Below are positions 6,021 to 38,545 of a DNA stretch of 64,000 nucleotides, piece by piece. A model generated the notes under the pieces. The model saw nothing but the letters and a program-made list of their open reading frames with translations, had not been told where the DNA came from and ran no database searches. The DNA is from Phenylobacterium sp. NIBR 498073. GTDB taxonomy: Bacteria; Pseudomonadota; Alphaproteobacteria; Caulobacterales; Caulobacteraceae. How positions within the stretch are numbered: the first letter of the stretch is position 1; each line of letters begins with the position of its first letter. The DNA is taken from assembly GCF_027286305.1 (NCBI RefSeq), contig NZ_CP114599.1, forward strand, positions 3,691,001-3,755,000, in the 5' to 3' direction. The translations under genes were made by a program, and so were the position numbers.

Positions 6021-8051
6021 TTAAGCCACGTGCTGCTCGCCCTTCGCCACTTGCTCGGCCAGCTTGCCGGGCAGTTCGGCCATGTGGTCGAACTGCGCGG
6101 TGAACTCGCCCAGCCCCTGGGTCAGGCCGCGCAGTTCCTGGATCAGGTCCTGACGCTCGGCCCTGGGCAGGCAGACCTCGATCTCGTCCCAGCCGCTCCA
6201 GCCCTCGCGCGGCGCGAAGCCGAGGATCTGGCCGCGCCGCGCCGACACCGCCTGGGTGATCTTCGAGGTCGAGGCCTGCGGCGCGTGGATGATCAGCTTC
6301 TCGACCGGCTCCAGCAGATAGGGCGCGGCGGCCCGCAGGCCCTCGCTCATCGCCAGCCGTCCGGCCGCCCGGAAGCTCATCTCCGAGGAGTCGACGCTGT
6401 GGTACGAGCCGTCGACCAGCACCACCTCGACGTCGGTCACCGGGAACCCGAAGGCGCCGCGCTCCATGGCGTCGCGCACGCCCTGCTCGACCGAGGGAAT
6501 CCACTGCTTGGGCACCACCCCTCCGGTGATCTTCTGCGAGAACGAAAAGCCCTCGCCCCGCGCCCGCGGCCTGATCTCCAGCACCACGTCGCCGAATTGG
6601 CCGTGGCCGCCGGTCTGCTTCTTGTGCCGCCCGCGCTGGGTGACCGGTTTGCGCAGGGATTCCTGGTAGGAGACCTTCGGCCGCCCGGTCGCCGCCTCGA
6701 CCCCGAACCTGCGCTTCAGCCGCTCCAGCAGCACATGCAGATGCGCCTCGCCGCGGCCGGAGACGATGGTCTCCTGGGTCGCCGGATCCTGGGCGACGAC
6801 GATGGCCGGATCCTCCTCGGCCAGCTTGTTCAGCGCCGCCGACAGCCGCACGTCGTCCTTGCGGTCCTTGGCCGAGATCGACATCGAGTAGAGCGTCGCC
6901 GGCGGGAACGCCGGCTGCGCCAGGCTGCGGGCCTTGGCGTCCATCGAGGCGACCATGCCCGGCATCGCCGCCTCCAGCTTGCCGATCGCGACCACCTCGC
7001 CTTCGAGCGCCTTGTCGGTCTTCTTGCCGCTTGGCGAGGAGAAGGTGACCAGCCCGCCCGCCCGCGCCTTGTCGCCGCCGCTCAGCGTCAGCTCCTGGCC
7101 GTCGGCCAGTTCGCCCTGCATCACCCGGCCATAAGCGATCTTGCCCGCCTGGCCGGCGTAGGAGGTCTTGAAAATGTAGGTGCAGGGCCCGTCCAGTCCC
7201 ATGCGTGCGGCCGCCGCCACCACGTCCGGCGTTTCGTGCCGCAGCGCCTTCAGCAGCCGCCGCACGCCGAACCCGTTCAGCGCCGAGCCGAAGAACACCG
7301 GGGTGATCAGCCCCTGGGCGAGGTCCGCCGCCAGGTCGGCGAACACCGCGTCCTGGTCGGGGCTCAGGTCCGACAGAAGTTGCTCCATCAGCGTATCGTC
7401 GAAATCGGCCAGCTGCTCCAGCATGTGGAACCGCGCATCGGCCTCGGCCGCCGCGACCTCGCCGGTCAGGTCGATCTGCTGGCTCGGCTGGCCCGGCCGG
7501 TAGACGAAGGCCCGCTCCAGCGCCAGGTCGACGAACCCGGTCACGTGCTCCTTCTCGACCAGCGGGATCTGCCGCGCGACCAGCCGGTTTCCCGAGGCCG
7601 GGGCCATCGCGGCCATCAGCTCGTCCAGCCCGCCGCGCGCCTGATCGATCTTGTTGACGAACACCGCATGCGGCGTCCGCCGCGCCTCCAGCTCCTTGAA
7701 GATCGGCTGCAGCAGATGGGCGCGCGCGGGGTTCGGGTCGGCGACGATGATCGCCAGGTCGACCGCCGGCAGCACGAAGTCCTCGGTCCCCGAGAACTCC
7801 GGCGATCCGGGACAGTCGATCACCGCATAGCGGTCGCCCATGAACTCGAAGCCCGCCACATTGAATTCAATGGTTTGCCCGCGGGCGCGCGCCTCCGGGC
7901 TGGCGTCGCCGACGCTGGCCGAGCCGACCTCGCCCTGGCGCGGGATCGCGCCGGCCGCGAACAGCATGGCTTCCATGAGGCTAGTCTTACCGGCTCCCGC
8001 CGCGCCGACGAGGGCGATGGCGCGTGCGGCGCCGGAACCTGGTCTGCCCAT
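6021..8051 (-). CDS. Elongation factor G-like GTPase (EF-G2 family)
   Basis: 676-residue translational GTPase with EF-G domain order (G, II, III, IV, V), of the shorter EF-G-like family common in alphaproteobacteria rather than canonical FusA. G1 is LVGAAGAGKTSLMEA, G3 is DCPGSPEF in place of DTPGHVDF and G4 is VNKIDQA. The catalytic switch-II His of EF-G is thus replaced by Ser, and the G2 region (RGQTIEFNVAGFEF) lacks the usual RGITI Thr pattern. Domain IV is recognisable (SYQESLRKPVTQRGRHKKQTGG). Start at 8051 gives the P-loop its normal distance from the N-terminus, after a GGGAGG site; an open frame extends upstream without homology. The family role is not established; canonical translocation is unlikely. 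Confidence 0.88.
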   Translation of the reverse strand: MGRPGSGAARAIALVGAAGAGKTSLMEAMLFAAGAIPRQGEVGSASVGDASPEARARGQTIEFNVAGFEFMGDRYAVIDCPGSPEFSGTEDFVLPAVDLAIIVADPNPARAHLLQPIFKELEARRTPHAVFVNKIDQARGGLDELMAAMAPASGNRLVARQIPLVEKEHVTGFVDLALERAFVYRPGQPSQQIDLTGEVAAAEADARFHMLEQLADFDDTLMEQLLSDLSPDQDAVFADLAADLAQGLITPVFFGSALNGFGVRRLLKALRHETPDVVAAAARMGLDGPCTYIFKTSYAGQAGKIAYGRVMQGELADGQELTLSGGDKARAGGLVTFSSPSGKKTDKALEGEVVAIGKLEAAMPGMVASMDAKARSLAQPAFPPATLYSMSISAKDRKDDVRLSAALNKLAEEDPAIVVAQDPATQETIVSGRGEAHLHVLLERLKRRFGVEAATGRPKVSYQESLRKPVTQRGRHKKQTGGHGQFGDVVLEIRPRARGEGFSFSQKITGGVVPKQWIPSVEQGVRDAMERGAFGFPVTDVEVVLVDGSYHSVDSSEMSFRAAGRLAMSEGLRAAAPYLLEPVEKLIIHAPQASTSKITQAVSARRGQILGFAPREGWSGWDEIEVCLPRAERQDLIQELRGLTQGLGEFTAQFDHMAELPGKLAEQVAKGEQHVA

Positions 8052-8061
8052 CCTATGGGCC

Positions 8062-8092
8062 CTCCCAACTGGAGGCGCCCGCCTCTTGGGAG
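8062..8092. promoter_or_regulatory. Long inverted repeat between divergent genes
   Basis: Two nested perfect arms: CTCCCAA (8062-8068) with TTGGGAG (8086-8092), and GAGGCG (8072-8077) with CGCCTC (8080-8085), a 13-bp stem with a three-base bulge and a two-base loop. It lies between the EF-G-like gene (start 8051, minus) and the SMR gene (start 8175, plus), so it is in both leaders or promoters. It may be an operator or an mRNA hairpin; no T-run follows on either strand. Confidence 0.5.
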
Positions 8093-8174
8093 CGGGCGCT
8101 CGTGACCCCGACCGGCTATATGCTTCCACCCGCTTGGCGATCTGCACAAGCGCCGAGTTCGATGAGGAGCAGGG

Positions 8175-8507
8175 ATGAACGGATACGCTTGGCTGGGCCT
8201 GGCCATCGTTGCGGAGGTGATCGCCACCAGCGCGCTGAAGGCGTCCGACAGTTTCACCCAGCTGGTCCCGTCGCTGATCACCGCAGTCGGCTACGGCGTC
8301 GCCTTCTACTGCCTGTCGCACTCGATGAAGACGGTGCCGGTCGGGATCGGCTACGCGATCTGGTCGGGCGTCGGCATCGTGCTGATCACCATCATCGCCT
8401 GGGTGCTGTTCAAGCAGCGGCTCGATCCGCCGGCCATGGTCGGCATGGGCCTGATCCTCGCCGGCGTGCTGGTGATCAACGTCTTCTCCAAGAGCTCGGC
8501 CCACTGA
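8175..8507 (+). CDS. SMR family multidrug/cation efflux protein (EmrE-like)
   Basis: 110 residues with four hydrophobic helices. The first holds the essential membrane Glu (LAIVAEVIATSALK) and the fourth-quarter motif YAIWSGVG is diagnostic of small multidrug resistance proteins. These work as antiparallel dimers in the inner membrane, exchanging protons for cationic drugs, quaternary ammonium compounds or guanidinium. Sequence around SALK and SGVGIV is nearer the EmrE/QacE branch than guanidinium-specific Gdx. The ribosome site GAGGAGCAGGG is strong. Single gene, divergent from the EF-G-like gene across an inverted repeat. Confidence 0.92.
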   Translation: MNGYAWLGLAIVAEVIATSALKASDSFTQLVPSLITAVGYGVAFYCLSHSMKTVPVGIGYAIWSGVGIVLITIIAWVLFKQRLDPPAMVGMGLILAGVLVINVFSKSSAH

Positions 8508-8510
8508 TCC

Positions 8511-8975
8511 TCAGTGGGCGCCGCCCGCCTCGACCTCCAGCGCCAGCCGCTCGATCCCCTCGCGGGTGCCGTGGATGCGGTCCTCCAGGTCGTCGTGGCC
8601 GTCGAAATAGGCCAGCTGCTCGGTCATCCGCATGAAGGTCGCCTCGCCCTCGCCGGTGAACTCGACGGTCACCAGCGAGGCCGACAGCCGCCGGCCGCCG
8701 ATCTCGACGTCGTAGGCGAAGACGATCCGCGCATCCTGCACGATGTCGAAGAACACCTTCTCGACCCGCTGGCTAACCCCGCTTGGCAGCTGCGCGCGAT
8801 AGCTCTCGCGCCCGCCGGGCCGGAAGTCCATTGTCAGCTCGGTCTCGCCCTCGTCGACGTGGCAGTCCGACCAGCGCTTCTTGGCCTCCAGGTCGGCCCA
8901 GGCCCCGAACACCGCCGCCGGCGGGGCGGCGAACCGGCGCTCGATCACGAAACTGGTGTGGCTCGCCGAGGTCAT
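8511..8975 (-). CDS. SRPBCC/AHSA1 domain protein
   Basis: 154-residue START-like (SRPBCC) protein of the AHSA1 group. Seen: FVIERRFAAPPAAVFGAWAD at the N-terminus, DFRPGGRESYRAQ in the middle and VEFTGEGEATFMRMTEQL with the C-terminal helix (DDLEDRIHGTREGIERLALE). The fold is a hydrophobic-cavity helix-grip. It is the third gene of a GST-ArsR-AHSA1 operon: its ATG overlaps the ArsR stop (ATGA at 8972-8975). ArsR/AHSA1 pairs are very common in bacteria and probably sense or handle a small hydrophobic ligand; the ligand is unknown. Confidence 0.88.
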   Translation of the reverse strand: MTSASHTSFVIERRFAAPPAAVFGAWADLEAKKRWSDCHVDEGETELTMDFRPGGRESYRAQLPSGVSQRVEKVFFDIVQDARIVFAYDVEIGGRRLSASLVTVEFTGEGEATFMRMTEQLAYFDGHDDLEDRIHGTREGIERLALEVEAGGAH

Positions 8976-9313
8976 CGGTCGTCTCTGCTCTTGGTCTGCG
9001 CCAGATAGGCGTCCAGCCGGTCGAACTGCGCGTTCCAGGCCCGCTTGCGCTGCGCCACCCAGGCCTCCAGCCCGGCGAAGGCGTCCGGCGCCAGGCGATA
9101 GGTCCGCACCCGCCCGGCCTTCTGCGAGGAGACCATGCCGCTCGCCTCCAGCACCGCCAGATGCTTCATCACCGACGGCAGCGCCAGGGTCGTCGGCGCC
9201 GCCAGCTCGCTGGCCGAGGCCGGGCCGCTGGCCAGCCGGTCGATCATCGCCCGCCGCCCCGGATCGGCCAGCGCCGTGAACACCCGGTCCAACCCCTCGC
9301 CGCCCCCGTTCAC
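8972..9313 (-). CDS. ArsR/SmtB-type transcriptional regulator
   Basis: 113-residue winged-helix repressor. The sequence FTALADPGRRAMIDRLASGP, SELAAPTTLALPSVMKHLAVL (recognition helix) and GMVSSQKAGRVRTYRL is typical of the metal-independent ArsR group paired with AHSA1 proteins; no CxC metal site is present. The GTG at 9313 is chosen because it overlaps the upstream GST stop (GTGA) and follows GGAGGAGG; an ATG 147 bases further upstream would add 49 residues without homology and overlap GST. It probably represses its own operon, whose promoter carries twin direct repeats at 9995-10063. Confidence 0.85.
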   Translation of the reverse strand: MNGGGEGLDRVFTALADPGRRAMIDRLASGPASASELAAPTTLALPSVMKHLAVLEASGMVSSQKAGRVRTYRLAPDAFAGLEAWVAQRKRAWNAQFDRLDAYLAQTKSRDDR

Positions 9314-27682: not shown

Positions 27683-29356
27683 CTAGGCCGCGGTCGGCAA
27701 TCCGGCGGACTCCTCGGTTTTCTTCGGACGCTTGGCCAGGCCGGCCACGCCGCCCGAGGTCAGCAGCCCCATGTCGGCCAGCAGCAGCGGGATCGCCCAC
27801 TTGTTGGGCGCCGCCATGTAGCGCGGCCGCCAGACCGGATCGTACTTGCCCTTGTAGGCCCGCACGCCCTGGAAGTTGTAGATTTCCTCGCCGCGCTCGA
27901 AGATCAGCGCCCCTACCCGCGACAGCACCGGGGCCAGCGGTCGGTCATCCAGTCCCGACAGCGGGGCCATGCCGAACTCGATCGCCTGGTAGCCCTCACG
28001 ACGGCCCCACTCGATCAGTTCGACGAACAGGTAGTCCATGATCCGACGCGGGCCTTCCTCGATGTACCGCATCAGGTCCATGGAGAAGGCGCTGCGGTTT
28101 GCGGTGACCCAGAGCGTGGCGAAGGCGATGATCTTGCCCTCGAACCGCACGATGCCGACCGGAAACTCGGCCACGTAGGACGGATAGAAGCCGCCCATCG
28201 AGAAGCTCTTGTCGCCGCCGGCGTGATGCACCAGCCAGGCGTCGGAGATCGCCTGCAACTGCGGCATGATCTCGTGCACCCGCTCGGGCGGCACGACCTC
28301 GAAGGTGGCGCCGGCCTCCCCAGCCTGGCGCCAGGCCCGGCGCAGGTTGCCGCGCTTGGTGCCCTCGATGGTGAACGTGTCCAGGGCGACCGCCGCGCTC
28401 TCGCCGACCTTGGCGATTGCAAAGCCCAACTCGACCACGTCGGGCAGGTCGTCGGCGTCCAGCCCGTAGAAGCCCGGGCGCGCGGCGTGGGCGTCGGCCA
28501 GTTCGCGGAAACGCCAGAGCAGATCCATCCGCTCGTCGCGGCGGCCGACCGGGGCGCCGAGCGAGATCCACGAGCGACCACGGACGCCGAACATCAGGAA
28601 GCTCTCGCCCGACGGGGAGAACAGGAAGCGCTTGTCGCCCAGCAGGGCGAGGTTCGATCCGGGCTCAGCATCCTCCGCCTTGGCCAGGACCGCGCGCACG
28701 CGGCCCAGTTCAGGGTCGTCCTCGCCGACGACCTTGGGGGTCGCAGCCGAGGCGAACAGCCGCCAGATCCCGAACGCCAGCAGCAGGATCGCCGCGCCGA
28801 CCCAGCCGCGGATGGCGCGGGCAGCGTCGGCGTCGGCCATCACCACCCAGAACGGCTTGTCGCCGTAGTCGGCGTGCTGGAACGACCACAGGCCCAGCAG
28901 TCCGGCGCCGACCATGACCGCGAAGGCCGAGATCAGCCAGCCCGGCGTGACCTCCATGCTGAGCAGCCGCGCCTTGCGCGGGAAGGCGCCGTGGAACGGC
29001 AGCAAGAGGGCGGCGAACAGCGCCAGGGCCAGCGCCTCCTCCCAGGCGAAGGCCTTGAGCAGGGCCAGCGGACTGGCGACGATCAGGGTGACGAGCGTGG
29101 CCCACCACGCCCCGTCCAGCCTGGCCCGCAGCCCGAAGGCCAGCAGCACCAGCACCAGGCCAAGGATGCTGGACAGGAAGTGGCTGACTTCGATCAGCAC
29201 CACGGGGCTGATCTCGTAGATCTGGAAGAAGCGGTCTGGGATGGTGGGCGTCGCGCCCGAGGCGAGGAGCATGATCCCAGCCAGCAGGGCCAGGATGGCT
29301 GCCGTTGACGGCGCCGCGGCGAAGGCCGCCGGCTTCAGTTCACGCCAAAACCTCAT
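27683..29356 (-). CDS. MprF-like phosphatidylglycerol lysyltransferase domain protein
   Basis: 557 residues: six hydrophobic helices in residues about 10-230 (STAAILALLAGIMLLASG, VSHFLSSILGLVLVLLAFGL, GWLISAFAVMVGAGLLGLWS and others), then a DUF2156 tandem GNAT domain (about 245-540) as in the catalytic end of MprF: FSPSGESFLMFGVRGRSW, YPSYVAEFPVGIVRF, SMDLMRYIEEGPRRIMDYL. MprF transfers an aminoacyl group from tRNA to phosphatidylglycerol, lowering membrane negative charge. At 557 residues it is about 300 shorter than full MprF and lacks most of the flippase part. Start at 29356 has GGAGGG just upstream. Single gene. Confidence 0.85.
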   Translation of the reverse strand: MRFWRELKPAAFAAAPSTAAILALLAGIMLLASGATPTIPDRFFQIYEISPVVLIEVSHFLSSILGLVLVLLAFGLRARLDGAWWATLVTLIVASPLALLKAFAWEEALALALFAALLLPFHGAFPRKARLLSMEVTPGWLISAFAVMVGAGLLGLWSFQHADYGDKPFWVVMADADAARAIRGWVGAAILLLAFGIWRLFASAATPKVVGEDDPELGRVRAVLAKAEDAEPGSNLALLGDKRFLFSPSGESFLMFGVRGRSWISLGAPVGRRDERMDLLWRFRELADAHAARPGFYGLDADDLPDVVELGFAIAKVGESAAVALDTFTIEGTKRGNLRRAWRQAGEAGATFEVVPPERVHEIMPQLQAISDAWLVHHAGGDKSFSMGGFYPSYVAEFPVGIVRFEGKIIAFATLWVTANRSAFSMDLMRYIEEGPRRIMDYLFVELIEWGRREGYQAIEFGMAPLSGLDDRPLAPVLSRVGALIFERGEEIYNFQGVRAYKGKYDPVWRPRYMAAPNKWAIPLLLADMGLLTSGGVAGLAKRPKKTEESAGLPTAA

Positions 29357-29519
29357 CCGCCCTCCAAATGGCCGCCCCTGGGGCCCGTATATATCGTGAT
29401 TTGCGCCATGGGCAGGGGCGACGGGGCCAGTCAAACAAGCGTTTCGTTCCGCTTGCTCTTGCACCGCCGCTCGCTAATGTGCCCGCGCGTAAAGGCGCTT
29501 CTGTTTGCGGGAGGAATTC

Positions 29520-30743
29520 ATGGCCGACTTTGGCGGCGGCGATCTCGACGCGTTCCGCGACGAGGTGAAGGCCTGGCTCGAAGCCAACTATCCCCCTGAA
29601 CTGCGCGATCGGAACGCCAAGACCGACGAAGAGGCGGTCTGGGGCGGCCGCGCCTTCGCCGGCTCCAGCGATCCGCAGATCGTCTGGATGCAGCGGATGG
29701 CGGACAAGGGCTGGACCGCGCCGACCTGGCCGCAGGCCTATGGCGGGGGCGGCCTCTCGCCGCAGCAGGCCCGCGTCCTCGACCAGGAGCTCAGCGCCGG
29801 CCGCTACCGCCAGCCGCTGGCCTCGTTCGGGATCTGGATGCTGGGCCCCGTGCTGCTCGAATACGGCTCCGAGGCGCAGAAGCTGGAATACCTGCCCAAG
29901 ATCGTCCGCGGCGAAATCCGCTGGTGTCAGGGCTATTCCGAGCCGGGCGCCGGCTCGGACCTCGCCGGCCTGCAGACCAAGTGCGAGGACAAGGGCGACC
30001 ATTGGCTGATTAACGGCCAGAAAATTTGGACTTCCTACGCCAACAAGGCCGACTGGTGCTTCTGCCTGGTCCGTACCGATACTTCGAAAAAGCACGAAGG
30101 AATCTCCTTCGTCCTTATTGATATGAAGACCCCGGGCGTCGAGACCCGGCCGATCCAGCTGATCTCGGGCGAGAGCCCGTTCTGCGAGACCTTCTTCACC
30201 GACGTGAAACTCGCCAAGGACGCCCTGGTCGGCAAGGTCAACGGCGGCTGGGAGATCGCCAAGCGGCTGCTGCAGTACGAGCGCCAGAACATCTCCGGCG
30301 GCTTCGGCGGCGGCGGCGGCGCGGGAGGCGCGGCCGGCGACCTGGGCCAGATCGCCAAGACCTATGTCGGGACCGACGAGAGCGGCGCCCTGGCCGACAG
30401 CGACCTGCGCACCCGCATCACCAAGAACAAGATGGACTTCGACTGTTTCTACAAGACCATCGCCCGCGTGGCGGCGGAGTCGAAGGCCTCCAACGGCCCC
30501 AGCGCCGCCACCTCGATCATCAAGTACGCCGCGGCGACCTTCGCCCAGGAGCGTTCGGAGCTGATGGTCGAGGCCATGGGCGCCCAGGGGCTGGGCTGGG
30601 AGGGCGAGGCCTACGCCCCGCTCGAACTGACCGCCACCCACGGCTGGCTGCGCTCGAAGGGCAACTCCATCGAGGGCGGCACCTCCGAGGTGAACCTCAA
30701 CGTGGTCTCCAAGCGGGTGCTCGGCCTGCCCGACCCCAAGTAA
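29520..30743 (+). CDS. Acyl-CoA dehydrogenase, array member 1
   Basis: 407-residue FAD-dependent acyl-CoA dehydrogenase with the three usual domains. Seen: WCQGYSEPGAGSDLAGLQT (FAD/substrate loop), KIWTSYANKADWCFCLVRTD (mid beta domain) and SIEGGTSEVNLNVVSKRVLG near the C-terminus. The Glu position used by medium-chain enzymes is Gly here (EGGT); instead LLQYER supplies a Glu where isovaleryl- and steroid-type enzymes keep theirs. First of four paralogues, with a glycine-rich insert GGFGGGGGAGGAAG (about residues 260-273). Strong ribosome site GGGAGGAATTC. Substrate probably branched or cyclic acyl-CoA, by group resemblance only. Confidence 0.9.
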   Translation: MADFGGGDLDAFRDEVKAWLEANYPPELRDRNAKTDEEAVWGGRAFAGSSDPQIVWMQRMADKGWTAPTWPQAYGGGGLSPQQARVLDQELSAGRYRQPLASFGIWMLGPVLLEYGSEAQKLEYLPKIVRGEIRWCQGYSEPGAGSDLAGLQTKCEDKGDHWLINGQKIWTSYANKADWCFCLVRTDTSKKHEGISFVLIDMKTPGVETRPIQLISGESPFCETFFTDVKLAKDALVGKVNGGWEIAKRLLQYERQNISGGFGGGGGAGGAAGDLGQIAKTYVGTDESGALADSDLRTRITKNKMDFDCFYKTIARVAAESKASNGPSAATSIIKYAAATFAQERSELMVEAMGAQGLGWEGEAYAPLELTATHGWLRSKGNSIEGGTSEVNLNVVSKRVLGLPDPK

Positions 30744-30751
30744 GTGTGAAC

Positions 30752-30779
30752 GACGGCGCCCTGTTCTTCGGGCCCCGTC
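30752..30779 (+). other. Hairpin between array members 1 and 2
   Basis: GACGG-C-GCCC (30752-30761), loop TGTTCTTC, GGGC-C-CCGTC (30770-30779): nine pairs with one C/C mismatch, directly after the stop of the first dehydrogenase and followed by only TT. More likely an attenuating or mRNA-stabilising hairpin than a full terminator. Confidence 0.45.
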
Positions 30780-30819
30780 CTTGATTTGATCGAAGCGATT
30801 TCGAGAGGCGAGATTTCCC

Positions 30820-32031
30820 ATGGCTGACTTCGGCGGCGACGACCTGCAGGCCTTCCGCAGCGAGGCGGCGGCCTGGCTCGAGGCGAACTTCCCCAAGGCC
30901 CTGGCCGCCGATCCGGCCGCCCAGGTCGCCAAGGCGAGCGGCGGCGAAGAGACGCCCGACGCGCTGGCCTGGCGCAAGGCCATGGGCGCGAAGGGCTGGG
31001 GCGTCCCGACCTGGCCGGCGCAATACGGCGGCGGCGGCCTGAGCCTCCAGCAGGCCCGCGTCCTGCACGAGGAAATGGCCAAGATCGGCGCCCGCAACCC
31101 GATCGGCGGCATGGGCGTGATGATGTTCGGCCCGACCCTGATCGAGTACGGGACCGAGGAGCTGAAGCGCCAGCACCTGCCGGGCATCGTCAGCGGCGAC
31201 GTCCGCTGGTGCCAAGGCTATTCCGAGCCGGGCTCCGGTTCCGACCTCGCCTCGCTGCAGACCCGCGCCGAGGACAAGGGCGAGACCTACCTCGTTAACG
31301 GCTCGAAAATTTGGACAAGCGGCGCCAATCTCGCCGACTGGTGCTTCTGCCTGGTGCGGACGGACACCTCGAAGAAGCACGAGGGCATCTCGTTCCTGCT
31401 GATCGACATGACCACGCCCGGCGTCGAGGTCCGGCCGATCCTGCTGATCAACGGCACCTCGCCGTTCTGCGAGACCTTCTTCACCGACGTGGTCGTCCCC
31501 AAGAACCAGCTGTTCGGCCCGCTGAACGGCGGCTGGACGGTAGCCAAGCGCCTGCTGCAGTTCGAGCGCGACAACATCTCGGCTGGCCTCGGCGGCGGCT
31601 CGATCGGCGCGCCGGTCAACGCCCTGACCGTCAAGAGCGCGGCGACCAAGTATGTCGGCCTGGACGAGAGCGGCCGGCTGGCCGACAGCGACCTGCGCCG
31701 GCGCATCACCGAACACCTGATGGAGGTGCAGAGCTTCCAGCAGACCGTCCGCCGCGCCGCCGACGAAGCCAAGGCCGGCAACGGCCCGTCGGCCGCCACC
31801 TCGATCATGAAGTACATGGGCGCCAAGGTGGCCATGGACCGCAACGAACTGATCGTCGAGGCCCTCGGCACGGCCGGCGCCGGCTGGGGCGGCGAAGGCT
31901 ACGAAGACCCCGAACTGGCCGCCGTCCGGACCTGGCTGCGCTCGAAGGGCAACTCGATCGAAGGCGGCACCTCGGAGATCAATCTGAACGTCGTTTCAAA
32001 ACGAGTGCTGGGCCTGCCCGATCCCAAGTGA
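30820..32031 (+). CDS. Acyl-CoA dehydrogenase, array member 2
   Basis: 403 residues, close paralogue of its neighbours. FAD/substrate loop WCQGYSEPGSGSDLASLQT, beta-domain KIWTSGANLADWCFCLVRT, probable catalytic Glu in LLQFER and C-terminal SIEGGTSEINLNVVSKRVLG (Gly at the medium-chain Glu position). The Gly-rich insert of member 1 is reduced to GLGGGSIGAP. Member 2 shares IEGGTSE and the LGLPDPK ending with member 1, whereas members 3 and 4 share IYGGS and DLTQN endings, so the array is two sister pairs. Gap of 76 bp to the previous gene. Confidence 0.9.
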   Translation: MADFGGDDLQAFRSEAAAWLEANFPKALAADPAAQVAKASGGEETPDALAWRKAMGAKGWGVPTWPAQYGGGGLSLQQARVLHEEMAKIGARNPIGGMGVMMFGPTLIEYGTEELKRQHLPGIVSGDVRWCQGYSEPGSGSDLASLQTRAEDKGETYLVNGSKIWTSGANLADWCFCLVRTDTSKKHEGISFLLIDMTTPGVEVRPILLINGTSPFCETFFTDVVVPKNQLFGPLNGGWTVAKRLLQFERDNISAGLGGGSIGAPVNALTVKSAATKYVGLDESGRLADSDLRRRITEHLMEVQSFQQTVRRAADEAKAGNGPSAATSIMKYMGAKVAMDRNELIVEALGTAGAGWGGEGYEDPELAAVRTWLRSKGNSIEGGTSEINLNVVSKRVLGLPDPK

Positions 32032-32066
32032 TTTTATAGTCCCGCCCGGAAACGGGAGCGCGAACC

Positions 32067-32094
32067 ATAATCGTCGCTAAGATAATGATTATTA
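32067..32094 (+). promoter_or_regulatory. AT-rich inverted repeat with Fur-like sequence before array member 3
   Basis: ATAATC (32067-32072) and GATTAT (32087-32092) are inverted copies. Overlapping them, 32080-32094 reads AGATAATGATTATTA, 13 of 15 bases of the 7-1-7 palindrome TGATAATnATTATCA used by Fur-type regulators. It ends at the AGGGAG ribosome site of the third dehydrogenase. In a 70% GC genome such an AT block between genes stands out; could be an operator, an internal promoter or an unstructured ribosome entry region. Confidence 0.4.
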
Positions 32095-32106
32095 GGGAGA
32101 ATTTTC

Positions 32107-33315
32107 ATGGCTGACTTTGGCGGCCCCGATTTGGAAGCCTTCCGCGCCGAAGCCAAGGAGTGGCTCGAGGCGAATTTCCCGAAGTCCCTGGGCAAGGACG
32201 TGGCCGGTCAGACCGCCGCGCTGATGAGCCCGGACAAGCCCACCGGCGACCTCGCCGTGTGGAAGGAACGCATGGGCGCCAAGGGCTGGGGCGTGCCGAC
32301 CTGGCCGAAGGCCTATGGCGGCGGCGGCCTCAGCGCGCCCGAGGCCCGCGTCCTGGCCCAGGAGATGGGCAAGATCGGCGCGGTGAACCCGATCGGCGGC
32401 ATGGGCGTGGGCATGTTCGGCCCGACGCTGCTGGAATACGGCACCGAGGAACAGAAGAAGAAGTATATCCCGGACATCGCCACGGCGAAGGTCCGCTGGT
32501 GCCAAGGTTTCAGCGAGCCGGGCGCAGGTTCCGACCTGGCCTCGCTGCAGACAAAGGCAGAAGACAAGGGCGATCACTGGATCGTAAACGGCTCGAAGAT
32601 CTGGACCAGCGGCGGCCAATACGCCGACATGATCTTCTGTCTTGTCCGCACCGACCAGACCCGCAAGCATGAAGGCATCTCGTTTGTTGTCTTCGACATG
32701 CACCAACCGGGCGTCGAAGTCCGCCCGATCAAGCTGATCGCCGGCAACTCGCCGTTCTGCGAGACCTTCTTCACCGACGTGAAGGTGCCGAAGGAGAACC
32801 TGGTCGGGCCGCTGAACGGCGGCTGGACGGTGGCCAAGCGCCTGCTGCAGCACGAGCGCAGCGGCATGAACGGCGGCCGCGCCGGCGGCGGCTCGAACGC
32901 CTCGCTGGGCGTGCTGGCCAAGAAGTACGTCGGCGAGGACGAACAGGGCCGCCTGGACGATCCGGATCTGCGCACCCGCATCATCCTCAACGAGATCGAC
33001 CAGCGCGCCGTGGCCCAGACCGTGGTCCGCGCCGCCCTGGAGTCCAAGGGCAATTCCGGCCCGTCGGCGGCGACCTCGATCATGAAGAACGCCTTCATGA
33101 AGGCGACCCAGGACCGCGCCGAACTGACTCTCGAGGTCATGGGCCACCAGGGCCTGGGCTGGGAGGGCGACGAGTTCAGCGAGGAGGAGCGCACCGCGGT
33201 CCGCACCTGGCTGTCGGGCAAGGCCGGCTCGATCTACGGCGGCTCGAACGAAGTGCAGAGCAACATCATTTCCAAGCGTATCCTGGGACTCCCGGACCTG
33301 ACCCAGAACCACTAG
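32107..33315 (+). CDS. Acyl-CoA dehydrogenase, array member 3
   Basis: 402 residues. WCQGFSEPGAGSDLASLQT and KIWTSGGQYADMIFCLVRTD mark the FAD and beta domains; LLQHER carries the probable catalytic Glu and SIYGGSNEVQSNIISKRILG the C-terminal motif with Gly in place of the medium-chain Glu. It differs from the other members by MIFCLVRTDQTRK where they have WCFCLVRTDTSKK, a loop that contacts acyl substrate in the family. Preceded by an AT-rich inverted repeat and a good ribosome site (TTAGGGAGAATTTTC), so it may have its own promoter. Confidence 0.9.
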   Translation: MADFGGPDLEAFRAEAKEWLEANFPKSLGKDVAGQTAALMSPDKPTGDLAVWKERMGAKGWGVPTWPKAYGGGGLSAPEARVLAQEMGKIGAVNPIGGMGVGMFGPTLLEYGTEEQKKKYIPDIATAKVRWCQGFSEPGAGSDLASLQTKAEDKGDHWIVNGSKIWTSGGQYADMIFCLVRTDQTRKHEGISFVVFDMHQPGVEVRPIKLIAGNSPFCETFFTDVKVPKENLVGPLNGGWTVAKRLLQHERSGMNGGRAGGGSNASLGVLAKKYVGEDEQGRLDDPDLRTRIILNEIDQRAVAQTVVRAALESKGNSGPSAATSIMKNAFMKATQDRAELTLEVMGHQGLGWEGDEFSEEERTAVRTWLSGKAGSIYGGSNEVQSNIISKRILGLPDLTQNH

Positions 33316-33330
33316 GGTGCATCCGAACCA

Positions 33331-33370
33331 GGCCGTTTGCGCCATGTCATTTCGCATGGCGCAGGCGGCC
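33331..33370 (+). other. Strong hairpin between array members 3 and 4
   Basis: GGCCG-TT-TGCGCCATG, loop TCATTTCG, CATGGCGCA-GG-CGGCC: a perfect nine-pair stem extended by four or five pairs across a 2x2 internal loop. Followed by GCGAGTTTTC, so a weak intrinsic terminator or mRNA-processing hairpin separating the third and fourth genes. Confidence 0.5.
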
Positions 33371-33412
33371 GCGAGTTTTCAAACGACCTGATTTTTCTAG
33401 GAGACTATTTCA

Positions 33413-34618
33413 ATGGCAGATTTTGGCGGCGGCGATCTCGACGCCTTCCGTTCGGAAGTGCGCGGCTGGGTCGAGGCCAACTTCCCCGCTTCGCTGAAGG
33501 GCAAGCCCAACCCGATGATGCGCGAAGAGCGCAGCAATCCGAGCCCGGACCAGGACGCCTGGCGCAAGGCGGTCGGCGCCAAGGGCTGGGGCACCCCGAC
33601 CTGGCCGGCCGAATACGGCGGCGGCGGCCTGTCGGCGGCCGAAGGCCGTGTGATCATGCAGGAATTCCAGCGCGCCGGCGCCTATAACCCGATCGGCGGC
33701 ATGGGCGTGATGATGTTCGGCCCGACCCTTCTGGAATACGGCACGGACGCACAGAAGAAAGAGCACATTCCGCCGATCTGCCGCGGCGAAATTCAGTGGT
33801 GCCAAGGTTTCAGCGAGCCGGGCGCCGGTTCCGACCTCGCGTCTCTTCAGTGCAAGGCTGAAGATAAGGGCGACCATTACCTGGTTAACGGCCAAAAAAT
33901 CTGGACTTCCGGCGCTCAATACGCCGACTGGTGCTTCTGCCTGGTGCGCACTGACACCAGCAAGAAGCATGAAGGCATCTCCTTCGTGCTGTTCACCATG
34001 CACCAGCCGGGCGTCGAAGTCCGCCCGATCCCGCTGATCGCCGGCAACTCGCCCTTCTGCGAAACCTTCCTGACCGACGCCCGCGCCGAGAAGAAGGATC
34101 TGGTCGGCCCGCTGAACGGCGGCTGGACCATCGCCAAGCGCCTGCTGCAGCACGAACGTTCGGGCCTGTCGGGCGCCGGCGGCGGCGGCTACGCCGGCGG
34201 CCGTTCCCTGCCGAAGCTGGCCAAGGACTATGTGGGCGTCGACGAGCAAGGCCGCCTGGCCGACAGCGACCTGCGCACCCGCGTCATCCTGAACGAGATC
34301 GACGGCCGCGCCTTCCAGCAGACCGCCGTGCGCGCGATGATGGAAGCCAAGGGCAATTCCGGCCCGTCGGCGGCGACCTCGATCATGAAGAACGCCGGCA
34401 CCCGCTGGATGCAGGACAAGGCCGAACTGACCCTCGAGATCATGGGTCACCAGGGCCTGGGCTGGGAAGGCGAGGCCTTCACCGGCGAAGAACTGGGCGC
34501 CGTGCGCTCGTGGCTCGGCGGCAAGGCCACCACGATCTATGGCGGTTCGCAGGAGGTGCAGAACAACATCATCTCCAAGCGCATCCTCGGCCTGCCGGAC
34601 CTGACGCAGAACAATTAA
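33413..34618 (+). CDS. Acyl-CoA dehydrogenase, array member 4
   Basis: 401 residues, sister of member 3. WCQGFSEPGAGSDLASLQC, KIWTSGAQYADWCFCLVRTD, LLQHER (probable catalytic Glu) and TIYGGSQEVQNNIISKRILG. Gly-rich insert GAGGGGYAGG after the catalytic helix. Ribosome site TAGGAGACTATTTC. 97-bp gap from member 3, containing a strong hairpin; 43-bp gap to the fifth gene, so members 4 and 5 are most likely on one transcript and the best candidate for direct partnership. Confidence 0.9.
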   Translation: MADFGGGDLDAFRSEVRGWVEANFPASLKGKPNPMMREERSNPSPDQDAWRKAVGAKGWGTPTWPAEYGGGGLSAAEGRVIMQEFQRAGAYNPIGGMGVMMFGPTLLEYGTDAQKKEHIPPICRGEIQWCQGFSEPGAGSDLASLQCKAEDKGDHYLVNGQKIWTSGAQYADWCFCLVRTDTSKKHEGISFVLFTMHQPGVEVRPIPLIAGNSPFCETFLTDARAEKKDLVGPLNGGWTIAKRLLQHERSGLSGAGGGGYAGGRSLPKLAKDYVGVDEQGRLADSDLRTRVILNEIDGRAFQQTAVRAMMEAKGNSGPSAATSIMKNAGTRWMQDKAELTLEIMGHQGLGWEGEAFTGEELGAVRSWLGGKATTIYGGSQEVQNNIISKRILGLPDLTQNN

Positions 34619-34661
34619 CCCTCAGAACAACCAACGAATTTTCGAGAATAGGATTTAAGAC

Positions 34662-35798
34662 ATGGCCGTTCTGAACGAAGAACAGAGCATGCTCCGCGAC
34701 GCGGCGAAGAGCTGGGTCCAGGAAAAGAGCCCGGTCACCGCCTTCCGCAAGATGCGCGACTCCGGCGTCGAGCTCGGCTACGACGCCGCCGCCTGGAACG
34801 AGCAGGCCGAAATGGGCTGGGCCGGGGTCATCATCCCGGAAGACTTCGGCGGGTCGAACTTCGGCTACCTGTCGATGGGCCTGATCCTTGAGGAGATGGG
34901 CCGCACGCTCACCGCCTCGCCGCTGCTGGCCTCGGGCCTGGCCGCCGCCAGCGCCCTGATCCTGGGCGGCGACGACGCCCAGAAGGGCGAGTACCTGCCG
35001 AAAATTGCCGACGGCTCGCTGGTCGCCACGCTCGCCGTTGACGAAGGCGCCCACCACGCCCCGGAAAAGGTCGCGCTGGAAGCCAAGAAGTCGGGCGCCG
35101 GCTACACCCTGAACGGCAAGAAGACCTTCGTGCTCGAAGGTCCGGGCGCCGGCCTGCTCATCGTCTCGGCCCGCACCAGCGGCAAGCCGGGCGACAAGGA
35201 CGGCATCAGCCTGTTCCTGGTGCCGGCCGACGCCAAGGGCGTGACCAAGCAGAACCTGAAGCAGGCCGACAGCCGCGGCGTCTCGAACATCTCGTTCGAC
35301 AACGTCGAGGTTTCCGCCGACGCCCTGCTGGGCGCCGAAGGCAAGGGCTGGGACGTGCTGGAAGCGACCCTCGACCGCGCCCGCGCGGGCGTGGCCGCCG
35401 AAATGCTCGGCGCCGCGGTCCAGGCCTTCGAAACCACGCTCGACTACCTGAAGGTCCGCGTTCAGTTCGGCCAGGTCATCGGTTCGTTCCAGGCCCTGCA
35501 GCACCGCGCGGCCAAGATGTTCACCGACCTGGAACTGGCCCGCTCGGCCGTCGAAGCCGCCCTGGCGGCGATCGACGCCGGCAGCCCGGACGTGCCGGAG
35601 CTGGTGTCGCTGGCCAAGGCCAAGATGGGCGACGTCTTCCACCTCGTCTCCAACGAGATGGTCCAGATGCACGGCGGCATCGGCATGACCGACGCCCACG
35701 ACGCGGGCTTCTACCTGAAGCGCGCCCGTGCGGCCGAGGCGGCCTATGGCAGCCAGTCGTACCACCGCGACCGCTACGCCCGCATCCAGGGCTACTAA
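34662..35798 (+). CDS. Acyl-CoA dehydrogenase-like protein, probable non-catalytic partner
   Basis: 378 residues with the acyl-CoA dehydrogenase fold (MAVLNEEQSMLRDAAKSWV; MGWAGVIIPEDFGGSNFGYL; LATLAVDEGAHHAPEKVALE; VRVQFGQVIGSFQALQHRAAKM; MHGGIGMTDAHDAGFYLKRA). It is a distant relative of the four preceding paralogues. At the medium-chain Glu position (YEGT) it has AYGS, and at the isovaleryl/steroid-type position it has TLDRAR, Asp not Glu, so neither known catalytic Glu is present. Such subunits occur in alpha2beta2 dehydrogenases of steroid degradation. It ends in a terminator, closing the array. Confidence 0.85.
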   Translation: MAVLNEEQSMLRDAAKSWVQEKSPVTAFRKMRDSGVELGYDAAAWNEQAEMGWAGVIIPEDFGGSNFGYLSMGLILEEMGRTLTASPLLASGLAAASALILGGDDAQKGEYLPKIADGSLVATLAVDEGAHHAPEKVALEAKKSGAGYTLNGKKTFVLEGPGAGLLIVSARTSGKPGDKDGISLFLVPADAKGVTKQNLKQADSRGVSNISFDNVEVSADALLGAEGKGWDVLEATLDRARAGVAAEMLGAAVQAFETTLDYLKVRVQFGQVIGSFQALQHRAAKMFTDLELARSAVEAALAAIDAGSPDVPELVSLAKAKMGDVFHLVSNEMVQMHGGIGMTDAHDAGFYLKRARAAEAAYGSQSYHRDRYARIQGY

Positions 35799-35810
35799 GA
35801 CCTTGAGCTT

Positions 35811-35834
35811 CGCGCCCCGGCCCGCCGGGGCGCG
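35811..35834 (+). other. Perfect 10-bp hairpin
   Basis: CGCGCCCCGG, loop CCCG, CCGGGGCGCG, 13 bases after the stop of the fifth dehydrogenase gene. No T-run; it precedes the true terminator and may protect the mRNA 3' end. Confidence 0.6.
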
Positions 35835-35855
35835 GGGTCATGGAGAGCAAACGAA

Positions 35856-35885
35856 GCCCCGCCAGCGCAAGCCGGCGGGGTTTTT
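35856..35885 (+). terminator. Rho-independent terminator of the dehydrogenase array
   Basis: Stem CCCCGCC (35857-35863)/GGCGGGG (35874-35880) with an inner GC-GCAA-GC tetraloop, followed by TTTTTG. A textbook intrinsic terminator 58 bp after the last dehydrogenase stop. Confidence 0.85.
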
Positions 35886-36122
35886 GTTTGGGGGCTAGCG
35901 GCGGCTGCTGGCGCCGGCCGCCAAGCCGCTCCGCCGCATCAGGGACATTTTCGTTAGGCCCCAGCGCGCATGACGAGCAACGTCTCGCCAGTCTACATGC
36001 TGTGTCACACAACGACACAGGACGGCCCGTCAACGAACATAGTTGGCGTGACTATTGATTTGTACTGGTCGCTAATATTACCACCGAGGAATAGAAATCC
36101 GGGACGAGTCGGAGGGGAAGCT

Positions 36123-37676
36123 ATGTCGTCTGAGTTTTTGAGGAACTTTGGTTTCGACGAGGACCCTTTCGCCTCCACCAATGCCGCAGACGAGCCACTC
36201 ATTGGGCAATACTTCGTTGAGCCGCCCTTTTTTCCAGCTGTTGTGGGGGACCCTAGGGTCCCAAAGAGCAACGTCGTCTTTGCGCCGCGCGGCGGGGGAA
36301 AAACCGCACAAAAGATAATGATCGAGCGCAAAAGCGCGGATGCAAACGAAAATTTCCTTTGCATTTCGTACGACAGCTTTCCTGTCGATAACCTACCCAA
36401 GGACAAGCTGGTTCCGGTCGAATTTCACCTCAACAACATATGTAGAACATTACTACTCGCAATATTATTGCGAATAGAGGACGCGAAACTTCCTCCGGGC
36501 GCGCTCGACAAAACTGACAAGATGCTCATCGTTTCAATGTCACGAGAGCTTTTAGGGCCAATAACTTCGGAGAAGTTCAGAGATTCTCTTAATTCCATAA
36601 AGTCCATGGGCGACAAGGCCGCGGACGCCTGGAATCGATACGGCGGAGTGATTGTAACTCTCGTAAATGCCATTTCGGCACGATTTGATTTCGGAAAGCT
36701 TGAACCCGCGCACTCCGAATTTCAACCAAACAGCGAGAGCATTCGATTCAAGTTCGCCTCGTTGATTTCTCTCGCGAGGAAAATTGGATATTCATCGACT
36801 TACATACTTGTCGATAGAGTCGATGAAATTGTCTTTACGGCTAGAGACGCAGAGCGTGCCTTCCAATTCCTCGAGTCGCTCCTGATAGATTTGCCCCTGC
36901 TCGAAACGCCAGGGGTCGCCTTCAAGTTCTTTCTTTGGGATCAAATGAAAGAGCATTATCAGAGCGCGGGCGGCCGCCCAGATCGCCTTTTGGAATACAC
37001 GCTCAATTGGTCCGTCGAGGAGCTCGCACGCGTACTTCAACGTCGACTTCAAAGTTATTCAGCAGGGAAGGTTTCACGCTTTGATGAACTCCTGGCTGAA
37101 GACACGCCGTACGACGTTCATAAGCTCGTCGCATACTTCGCTCACGGCTCCCCCCGGGACATGGTGCGCATTTGCAAGAAAATCACAGATGAGCATACTA
37201 GATCCGGCAAGTTTTCCGCGAAAATTGAGTTTCGCACGGTGAAATCGGCCATTATGGCGTTCTCAACCGAACGAGCACGCGAGCTATACGGCGAGCACTT
37301 CTCTGAAATTAGAAAAGTTGACGGCCTCAACTTTACCATTAGCGCCCTCGCGAGCTCTGTATTCCGCGTTTCTCAGCAGGCGGCGCGAGCAAAGGTCCAG
37401 AAATGGCTTGCATCGGGCGCAGTTGTAAAAATCGGCGACGTTCCGAATCCGGGAAATCGTCCACAATATTTGTACGGCATTGTTGATCCCCGCTTGGCGG
37501 TTGCGGTCCTATCAGAGGCAAGCATCGAAGAAGCCGTCGAGGATTTCTTGAAAATTTGCCCCCACTGTCAGAGCCTCCGGATTGCAGTCGAAGGCGACAT
37601 CACTTGTCCCGATTGTCAGGGTAACTTCAAAAGTGATGGCGCGACGACGCTCGCAGATGTCATTACTCGACACTAG
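36123..37676 (+). CDS. P-loop ATPase, Sll1717 family, with winged helix and zinc ribbon
   Basis: 517 residues. N-terminus FLRNFGFDEDPFASTNAADE and IGQYFVEPPFF match the Sll1717-type P-loop ATPase family. Walker A is FAPRGGGKTAQK (residues about 57-66, Ala replacing the first Gly), Walker B is YILVDRVDEI (about 230) and GSPRDMVRICKKI (about 345) is a sensor-2-like segment. A winged-helix-like region follows (ALASSVFRVSQQAARAKVQ) and the C-terminus is a zinc ribbon (CPHC and CPDC). G+C and codon use (AAT, ATA, TTA, AGA codons) are clearly lower than all neighbours, so it was probably acquired. Related ATPases lie in defence islands; an anti-phage role is inference. Confidence 0.8.
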   Translation: MSSEFLRNFGFDEDPFASTNAADEPLIGQYFVEPPFFPAVVGDPRVPKSNVVFAPRGGGKTAQKIMIERKSADANENFLCISYDSFPVDNLPKDKLVPVEFHLNNICRTLLLAILLRIEDAKLPPGALDKTDKMLIVSMSRELLGPITSEKFRDSLNSIKSMGDKAADAWNRYGGVIVTLVNAISARFDFGKLEPAHSEFQPNSESIRFKFASLISLARKIGYSSTYILVDRVDEIVFTARDAERAFQFLESLLIDLPLLETPGVAFKFFLWDQMKEHYQSAGGRPDRLLEYTLNWSVEELARVLQRRLQSYSAGKVSRFDELLAEDTPYDVHKLVAYFAHGSPRDMVRICKKITDEHTRSGKFSAKIEFRTVKSAIMAFSTERARELYGEHFSEIRKVDGLNFTISALASSVFRVSQQAARAKVQKWLASGAVVKIGDVPNPGNRPQYLYGIVDPRLAVAVLSEASIEEAVEDFLKICPHCQSLRIAVEGDITCPDCQGNFKSDGATTLADVITRH

Positions 37677-37701: not shown

Positions 37702-37777
37702 CTAAGCCAAATTGCTCAACGAGGGGCAAGGGGCGCCACGTCCGCTTCCGACGCCCCGGCGCGCGATGCTCCGCGCC

Positions 37778-38545
37778 ATGGCCCGGCCTCCCTCCCCGCC
37801 CCTGCCCGTCATCGACCACAAGGGCGGCGCCAAGGCGAGCCAGTACCACCCGAACCTCGGCTGGGAGATCTGCCAGCGGATCTGCGACGGGCTGACGATC
37901 AAGGAGATCGCCGCCGATCCGGCCATGCCGTCCTACGCCACCATCTTTCACTGGCGGAAGATGCACCCGGAGTTCGCGGCGATGTACGACGCCTGCCGCG
38001 ACAAGCTGGCCTGGAAGCGGCAGATGGAGGCCGCCTCGCTCGCGCGGGCGAGCGCGGCGCGGCGTGAGCAGGAGGTGGCGCGCGGCCTGCGCCGGCGGCG
38101 GCCGGCGGGGGCCGGGCGCAAGAGCACCTTTACGATGGAGGCGGCGCTGGCGGTGTGCGTGCGGCTGGCCGCCGGCCAGGCGCTGAGCGCCATCTGCGCG
38201 CGCCCGGACATGCCGTCGCTGAAGGCGGTCTATACCTGGCTGAAGCGGTTCCCGGTGTTCGAGGCCATGTACCTGACCGCGCGCGACGAACAGCGCATGT
38301 GGCTGGAGCTGAAGATCGAGCACGTGATCGGCTCGTGCCACTGGACGCAGTTCGAGGCGGCCAAGGCGCAGGTGGCGCAGCTGCAGGAACGGCTGGGGCG
38401 GCTGACGCCCAAGCACTATCGGCCGGGCGGGCGGGCGGCGCCGGTGACGCTGGAGGGCGAGGCGTTTTCCGGCCCGCTGTTCGGCGACCACAGCGGGCGG
38501 GTCACGCGGGGGCCTTGGCTGAACGGGGTGCTGGACGAGGATTGA
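37778..38545 (+). CDS. Terminase small-subunit-like protein with duplicated domain
   Basis: About 255 residues. Two copies of a helix-turn-helix module resembling phage terminase small subunits: ICQRICDGLTIKEIAADPAM followed by PSYATIFHWRKMHPEFAAMY (about residues 28-68), and ALAVCVRLAAGQALSAICAR followed by PDMPSLKAVYTWLKRFPVFE (about 124-162). A basic linker RGLRRRRPAGAGRKS joins them. No portal, large terminase or other phage gene is nearby. The start is uncertain: ATG 37778, ATG 37766 and TTG 37712 are all in frame and none has a clear ribosome site. Composition is normal for the chromosome, unlike the adjacent ATPase. May be a domesticated DNA-binding protein. Confidence 0.65.
   Translation: MARPPSPPLPVIDHKGGAKASQYHPNLGWEICQRICDGLTIKEIAADPAMPSYATIFHWRKMHPEFAAMYDACRDKLAWKRQMEAASLARASAARREQEVARGLRRRRPAGAGRKSTFTMEAALAVCVRLAAGQALSAICARPDMPSLKAVYTWLKRFPVFEAMYLTARDEQRMWLELKIEHVIGSCHWTQFEAAKAQVAQLQERLGRLTPKHYRPGGRAAPVTLEGEAFSGPLFGDHSGRVTRGPWLNGVLDED

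What the first reader, a model, noticed from the sequence alone, without database searches (positions are those of the whole stretch)
29520..35798. Four catalytic acyl-CoA dehydrogenase paralogues sharing one non-catalytic partner
Five acyl-CoA dehydrogenase genes lie head to tail. Members 1-4 are two sister pairs, each with Glu in LLQYER/LLQFER/LLQHER and Gly at the medium-chain Glu position. Member 5 is distant and has neither Glu (AYGS and TLDRAR). In known alpha2beta2 dehydrogenases (steroid side-chain and ring degradation, for example ChsE4-ChsE5) one subunit is catalytically dead and genes are paired 1:1. Here the ratio is 4:1, suggesting four interchangeable catalytic subunits with different acyl pockets using a common partner: a combinatorial dehydrogenase set.
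Basis: partly seen in the sequence, partly recalled or inferred. Interest (0 to 1): 0.65.

Follow-up and report, generated by a model that had tools for sequence, protein, structure and literature searches.

The report
Many catalytic subunits, one shared partner
A Phenylobacterium genome carries four different catalytic fat-oxidising enzyme subunits in a row followed by one inactive partner subunit that holds the other half of the cofactor site, and many relatives carry two to five such subunits per partner, suggesting that one partner serves several interchangeable catalytic subunits.

Summary
The five genes are real, head to tail, under purifying selection and probably one operon. Members 1-4 look like catalytic (alpha) and member 5 like non-catalytic (beta) subunits of the PimCD/ChsE type of alpha2beta2 acyl-CoA dehydrogenase. 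The strongest evidence is complementary FAD half-sites. All 249 related alphas compared keep the flavin-ring half and the catalytic Glu and lack the key ADP-side letters; all 80 betas show the reverse. In published structures of this type alpha binds the flavin ring and beta the ADP-ribose, so members 1-4 should not make an ordinary FAD homotetramer.

The n:1 array is conserved: of 66 loci not cut upstream, 61 have 2-5 alphas before one beta. Sampled genomes of the window's genus hold 99 alphas to 18 betas of this type (23 at a laxer cut-off); a genus of the same family holds 17:17, and other Alphaproteobacteria mostly adjacent 1:1 pairs. This genome also has three such alphas with no adjacent beta, and a fairly recent copy of member 5 beside a more diverged fifth alpha. 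A shared beta is therefore likely (about 0.72).

Not shown: assembly, different substrates, mixed tetramers. New variant of a known kind. Dicarboxyl-CoAs or other bulky acyl-CoAs are the likeliest substrates (inferred).

The parts
29433..29444 (.). AAAC-N4-GTTT inverted repeat, a candidate regulator site, upstream of member 1
   Evidence: kept in the window and all 6 aligned close relatives; role inferred
29452..29481 (+). Promoter-like block CTTGCTCTTG-N11-GCTAATGTG
   Evidence: both outer parts conserved in 7 of 7 sequences; the E. coli-type scan found no promoter in 29300-36000; role inferred
29520..30743 (+). Member 1, catalytic (alpha) subunit
   Evidence: (best NCBIfam PimC large subunit, 269.5 bits, under cut-off)
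30820..32031 (+). Member 2, catalytic (alpha) subunit
   Evidence: (PimC large, 260.7 bits, under cut-off)
32107..33315 (+). Member 3, catalytic (alpha) subunit
   Evidence: PimC large, 294.1 bits, under cut-off; best solved relatives Tcur3483 and ChsE4
33413..34618 (+). Member 4, catalytic (alpha) subunit, the alpha next to beta
   Evidence: PimC large, 270.1 bits, under cut-off; four best PDB folds are 6wy9_A, 6wy8_B, 4x28_B, 4x28_A, the alpha chains
34662..35798 (+). Member 5, non-catalytic (beta) subunit keeping the ADP-side FAD site
   Evidence: (best NCBIfam PimD small subunit, 241.1 bits, under cut-off)
35857..35885 (+). G+C-rich hairpin followed by five T: likely terminator of the five-gene unit
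   Evidence: sequence read; the scan lists this stem on the - strand only

Best explanation
Members 1-4 are four alternative catalytic subunits that each assemble with member 5 as an alpha2beta2 acyl-CoA dehydrogenase. Each alpha supplies the substrate pocket, the catalytic Glu (E248 in member 4) and the flavin-ring half of the FAD site. Member 5 supplies the ADP-binding half and the partner face, and does no chemistry. Choosing the alpha changes the substrate; the beta stays the same. The array arose by duplication of alpha only, from a 1:1 PimCD-like pair. Shown here: gene order, half-site split, alpha excess, conservation, selection. Inferred: assembly, sharing, the ancestral 1:1 state, different substrates (most likely dicarboxyl-CoAs or other bulky acyl-CoAs), electron transfer to ETF.
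For: Half-sites: of the 37 acyl-CoA dehydrogenases that PF00441 found in this genome, I read 14 as alpha-type, 6 as beta-type and 17 as neither. Among relatives (249 full-length alphas from 71 loci, 80 betas from 80 loci) 249 of 249 alphas have S-E-P, G-S-D, W-T-S and the Glu, and none has the F of R..FG or the Q of Q..GG; 80 of 80 betas have R..F and Q.HGG (79 also the G of FG), and none has the Glu or the G-S of G-S-D. A paper passage states that in ChsE4-ChsE5 and ChsE1-ChsE2 alpha binds the flavin ring and has the Glu while beta contacts ADP-ribose (PMC10925408). Members 3 and 4 match the known alpha chains best. Array conserved: 61 of 66 uncut loci have 2-5 alphas before one beta. Ratio: 17 genomes of this genus, 99 alphas to 18 betas (typed, summed). 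In three further genomes classified gene by gene alpha:beta was 10:4, 15:7 and 4:3, and every beta there that is not of the member-5 type has its own adjacent alpha. Swap-like event: the second beta copy (dS 0.15 to member 5) sits beside an alpha with dS 0.83 to member 3 that branches just outside the member-3 clade (support 81).
Against: No biochemical or complex-structure evidence; an operon does not prove binding. Member 5 has the weakest predicted ribosome-binding site of the five (-6.4 against -7.3 to -10.3 kcal/mol), so nothing suggests that beta is made in excess to match four alphas. Member 5's best fold and sequence matches are ordinary homotetrameric enzymes; its known beta counterpart is at rank 11. 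Two loci (L055, L057) have a beta with no alpha in the 17 kb held. Five of the 15 surplus alphas and two of eight in this genome belong to other families, so beta shortage is not special to this array.
Confidence: 0.72

Rival explanations
1. Member 5 is the dedicated partner of member 4 only. Members 1-3 pair with other beta subunits made elsewhere in the genome.
For: The alpha next to beta is of the member-4 type in nearly all arrays (exceptions with another type: L110, L111, L116). Four other betas exist in the genome besides the two member-5-type ones.
Against: Each of those four sits next to an alpha of another family, only 31-39% identical to members 1-4. In the three other genomes classified, 10 of 15 surplus alphas are of the array family (counted by hand). 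Members 1-3 have stayed in the array in many species.
Confidence: 0.13
2. The beta is shared, but the alphas are redundant copies with one substrate range, kept for dosage or by chance.
For: Alpha number varies from 0 to 5 before a beta; no pathway genes were recognised among the neighbours scanned that would assign a substrate.
Against: The alpha clades diverged before the sampled species did and are kept as separate lineages under purifying selection. The residue beside the active-site Gly is largely clade-specific, Glu against Tyr/Phe.
Confidence: 0.2
3. Members 1-4 work without a beta, as homomers with altered FAD binding.
Against: All 249 alphas lack the F and Q of the two ADP-side motifs. 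A review says the heterotetramer is essential for activity in the steroid relatives studied (PMC8399759, passage).
Confidence: 0.04

Closest known systems
PimC-PimD pimeloyl-CoA dehydrogenase (large and small subunit) of Rhodopseudomonas palustris; NCBIfam TIGR03204 and TIGR03203
   Same: Best NCBIfam models of members 1-4 and of member 5 respectively. PimCD-like pairs in beta-proteobacteria have strong fitness effects on C8-C12 dicarboxylic acids and were suggested to be heterotetramers (PMC12543098, passages).
   Different: Scores of 261-294 and 241 bits are far below the cut-offs of 624 and 653; several large subunits for one small one.
ChsE4-ChsE5 and Tcur3481-Tcur3483 steroid acyl-CoA dehydrogenases (PDB 4x28, 6wy8, 6wy9)
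   Same: Same alpha/beta split; their alpha chains are the best solved relatives of members 3 and 4.
   Different: 27-30% identity in the fold alignments; one alpha and one beta in those complexes; no steroid gene recognised among the 10 neighbours scanned.
FadE31-FadE32-FadE33 of Mycobacterium tuberculosis
   Same: As I recall it, one subunit was proposed to pair with two others: the nearest precedent for a shared subunit.

Membership tests
alpha2beta2 heteromeric acyl-CoA dehydrogenase (ChsE/IpdE/PimCD kind) | Alpha chain keeps the catalytic Glu and the flavin-ring half of the FAD site and lacks the ADP half | tested here: met
   members 1-4 and 249 of 249 relatives
alpha2beta2 heteromeric acyl-CoA dehydrogenase (ChsE/IpdE/PimCD kind) | Beta chain lacks the Glu and keeps the ADP half | tested here: met
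   member 5 and 80 of 80 relatives
alpha2beta2 heteromeric acyl-CoA dehydrogenase (ChsE/IpdE/PimCD kind) | Forms an alpha2beta2 tetramer with two FAD | not testable with these tools
   only single chains could be folded
alpha2beta2 heteromeric acyl-CoA dehydrogenase (ChsE/IpdE/PimCD kind) | One alpha gene beside one beta gene (usual, not strictly defining) | tested here: not met
   4:1 here; 2-5:1 in 61 of 66 uncut loci
PimC/PimD equivalogs (TIGR03204, TIGR03203) | Score above the curated cut-off | tested here: not met
   260.7-294.1 against 623.85; 241.1 against 652.7
IpdE2 equivalog (NF050027) | Score above the curated cut-off | tested here: not met
   member 5 146.5 against 450
Steroid-degradation acyl-CoA dehydrogenase | Lies among steroid catabolic genes | tested here: inconclusive
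   Pfam scan of 10 neighbouring frames; none recognised as a steroid gene, two without any match; the rest of the window was not scanned
Homotetrameric acyl-CoA dehydrogenase | Both FAD half-sites and a catalytic Glu in one chain | tested here: not met
   none of members 1-5

The most novel reading that the evidence does not exclude
One beta protein is the common FAD-holding chassis for all alphas of this family in the cell: the four of the array, the fifth beside its copy, and the three with no adjacent beta. Tetramers with two different alphas form, giving one enzyme with two different active sites, and lineages gain substrates simply by adding alpha genes.
Probability: 0.3. Interest if true: 0.75.

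Novelty: new variant of a known kind. Interest (0 to 1): 0.56.

Why it matters
It would show that heteromeric acyl-CoA dehydrogenases can work as a plug-in system: a fixed partner that completes the cofactor site plus a growing set of exchangeable catalytic subunits. That would explain why such genomes carry far more alphas than betas, warn against assigning partners by gene adjacency alone, and offer a ready set for engineering oxidation of dicarboxylic or bulky acids. It turns a loose question (how subunit sharing evolves) into a direct test with five genes.

Tried and rejected
Filing the genes as PimC/PimD or IpdE2: scores far below the cut-offs. A steroid role for the window array: no support among 10 neighbouring frames. 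The printed alignment of member 3 puts Gly, not Pro, at the ChsE4 position that a paper links to a wide pocket (PMC10925408), with a Pro two residues earlier; read by eye, little weight. A strong ribosome site for member 5: not found; no promoter found by the E. coli-type scan. Slower evolution of beta as a sign of many partners: beta is the most conserved gene of the array in two of three genome pairs, less conserved than alpha in all six pairs of one 1:1 family and in the one pair of another, and mixed in a third; weak.

Corrections and limits of the counts. One of the 14 'five-alpha' loci, L056, is a four-alpha array with one gene split by a frameshift in the contig, so the corrected numbers are 30 loci with 4 and 13 with 5. 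Fourteen of 80 loci were left out of the ratio because the contig starts too close. L118 counts as 0 because its two alphas lie over 500 nt away. The 249 alphas are those of at least 360 aa whose best match is to members 1-4, aligned from near their start. The 99:18 ratio uses E <= 1e-115 for alpha and E <= 1e-130 for beta; counting every beta-search hit at E <= 1e-60 gives 99:23. Counts are lower bounds, since at most 12-16 candidates per genome were scored. In G084 only 29 of 38 Pfam hits were fetched and classified (the nine left out scored 135 bits or more); in G026 26 of 26 and in G096 18 of 18. One of the six betas of this genome (at 1.80 Mb) still has S-D at the ring-side position. Trees are quick ones, with long branches flagged.

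Paper searches (listings, some capped) showed no title or abstract about this array or an acyl-CoA dehydrogenase beta shared by several alphas; the library lacks most subscription journals. Papers seen as passages only: PMC8399759, PMC6429209, PMC6593523, PMC12543098, PMC10925408, PMC6678751, PMC12502768.
Full report
What is there. Five acyl-CoA dehydrogenase genes lie head to tail on the + strand at 29520-35798, with spacers of 43-97 nt. All three Pfam domains are present in each. A promoter-like block and an AAAC-N4-GTTT repeat upstream of member 1 are conserved in six close relatives, and a hairpin with a T run follows member 5 (sequence), so one transcription unit is likely. dN/dS of 0.03-0.24 in 30 of 30 comparisons says all five are working genes. 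The nearest named relatives are Phenylobacterium, for example P. haematophilum. The flanking genes are a phosphatidylglycerol lysyltransferase-type gene on the opposite strand upstream and a defence-type ATPase downstream, not a recognisable pathway.

What kind. The best NCBIfam models are the pimeloyl-CoA dehydrogenase large subunit for members 1-4 and the small subunit for member 5, all well under the curated cut-offs. The best solved relatives of members 3 and 4 are the catalytic chains of two alpha2beta2 enzymes, Tcur3483 and ChsE4, and a model of member 4 (mean pLDDT 81.6) finds the same chains as its four best folds. Member 5 (pLDDT 92.3) resembles ordinary acyl-CoA dehydrogenases most, with Tcur3481 at rank 11.

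The half-site test. In an ordinary enzyme of this family one chain binds the flavin ring and the neighbouring chain helps to bind the ADP part (established knowledge of the family). A paper passage says that in ChsE4-ChsE5 and ChsE1-ChsE2 alpha binds the ring and has the Glu while beta contacts ADP-ribose (PMC10925408). I aligned the 37 enzymes found in this genome and read both halves by eye: 14 have only the ring half, 6 only or mainly the ADP half, and 17 fall in neither class. In 249 alphas (71 loci) and 80 betas (80 loci) the split is clean: no alpha has the F of R..FG or the Q of Q..GG, no beta has the Glu or the G-S of G-S-D, and one beta lacks only the G of FG. This is the main reason to think that members 1-4 need a beta.

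Is the beta shared? Among 80 related loci, 14 are cut by the contig start. The other 66 have 0 (3 loci), 1 (2), 2 (9), 3 (9), 4 (29) or 5 (14) alphas directly before one beta; one of the fives is really a four with a split gene. In the 17 genomes of the window's genus listed I counted 99 alphas to 18 betas of this type, or 23 if every hit at E <= 1e-60 is counted; in the 15 listed genomes with a match of another genus of the family (g22), 17 to 17 (from the tables, by hand; the first total summed). Class-wide (153 genomes), 16 other genomes hold 19 alphas and 20 betas, with 18 of the 19 alphas within about 110 nt of a beta, while one genome of another family (G121) has a 4+1 array plus one further alpha (by hand; the beta of G002 is taken). 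In three genomes classified gene by gene the ratios were 10:4, 15:7 (29 of 38 hits examined) and 4:3; each beta not of the member-5 type has an adjacent alpha, and 10 of the 15 alphas left over are of the array family.

Two features of this genome add to this. Three alphas of this family stand without an adjacent beta (two in L120, one in L125), and the one in L125 branches inside a clade of array alphas (long branch, so its place is unsure). And a second beta, 97.6% identical to member 5, sits beside a fifth alpha. That beta copy is fairly young (dS 0.15, against 0.07-0.13 between member 5 and its three nearest relatives), whereas its alpha is far from member 3 (dS 0.83) and branches just outside the member-3 clade with support 81. 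A beta shaped by one set of alphas thus appears to have been placed beside an older one.

How it probably works. Each alpha brings the pocket, the catalytic Glu and the flavin-ring half-site; member 5 brings the ADP half-site and the contact face. Substrates are not known. PimCD-like pairs in beta-proteobacteria matter for C8-C12 dicarboxylic acids (PMC12543098, passages), so dicarboxyl-CoAs are a fair first guess. Different pockets are suggested by the residue before the active-site Gly: Glu in 57 of 57 member-1-like and 44 of 50 member-2-like alphas, Tyr or Phe in 43 of 49 member-3-like and 86 of 93 member-4-like ones.

What speaks against it. No assembly was tested. The ribosome site of member 5 is predicted to be the weakest of the five. 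Some loci have a beta without an alpha (L055, L057), and surplus alphas also occur in other families. The possibility that members 1-3 use another beta is not excluded, only made unlikely.

Novelty. Alpha2beta2 acyl-CoA dehydrogenases are known; an alpha array with one beta, varying between species, did not turn up in the listings of the searches named. A partial precedent in M. tuberculosis (FadE31 with FadE32 and FadE33) is recalled, not read. New variant of a known kind.

Noticed in passing
window 35970-37676 (+): The gene right after the array matches the NCBIfam anti-phage model DS41_1 (435.4 bits, cut-off 370). Its G+C is 51% in a window of 70%, which suggests foreign origin.
   Followed up: partly
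L119 and L120 (own genome, about 1.78-1.815 Mb): A stretch with mostly lower third-position G+C than the window carrying P450, old-yellow-enzyme-like, TetR, TonB-receptor-like, aldehyde dehydrogenase, thiolase-like, CoA ligase and GMC oxidoreductase genes, plus three alphas of the array family, a copy of member 5 and another alpha-beta pair: looks like a catabolic island.
   Followed up: partly
window 37712-38545 (+): Open frame matching the Sf6-type phage terminase small subunit (PF20901, 108.5 bits), overlapped by a frame on the other strand with no Pfam match.
   Followed up: no
L055 and L057, around 7866-9134: A member-5-type beta with no alpha in the locus; the same two assemblies also hold, on another contig, a beta with at least one alpha before it (L109, L041).
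   Followed up: no
   Followed up: no
L124 and L126 (own genome): Two further alphas, 34-39% identical to members 1-4, also lack an adjacent beta, so partner sharing may extend to other families of these enzymes.
   Followed up: partly
   Followed up: no
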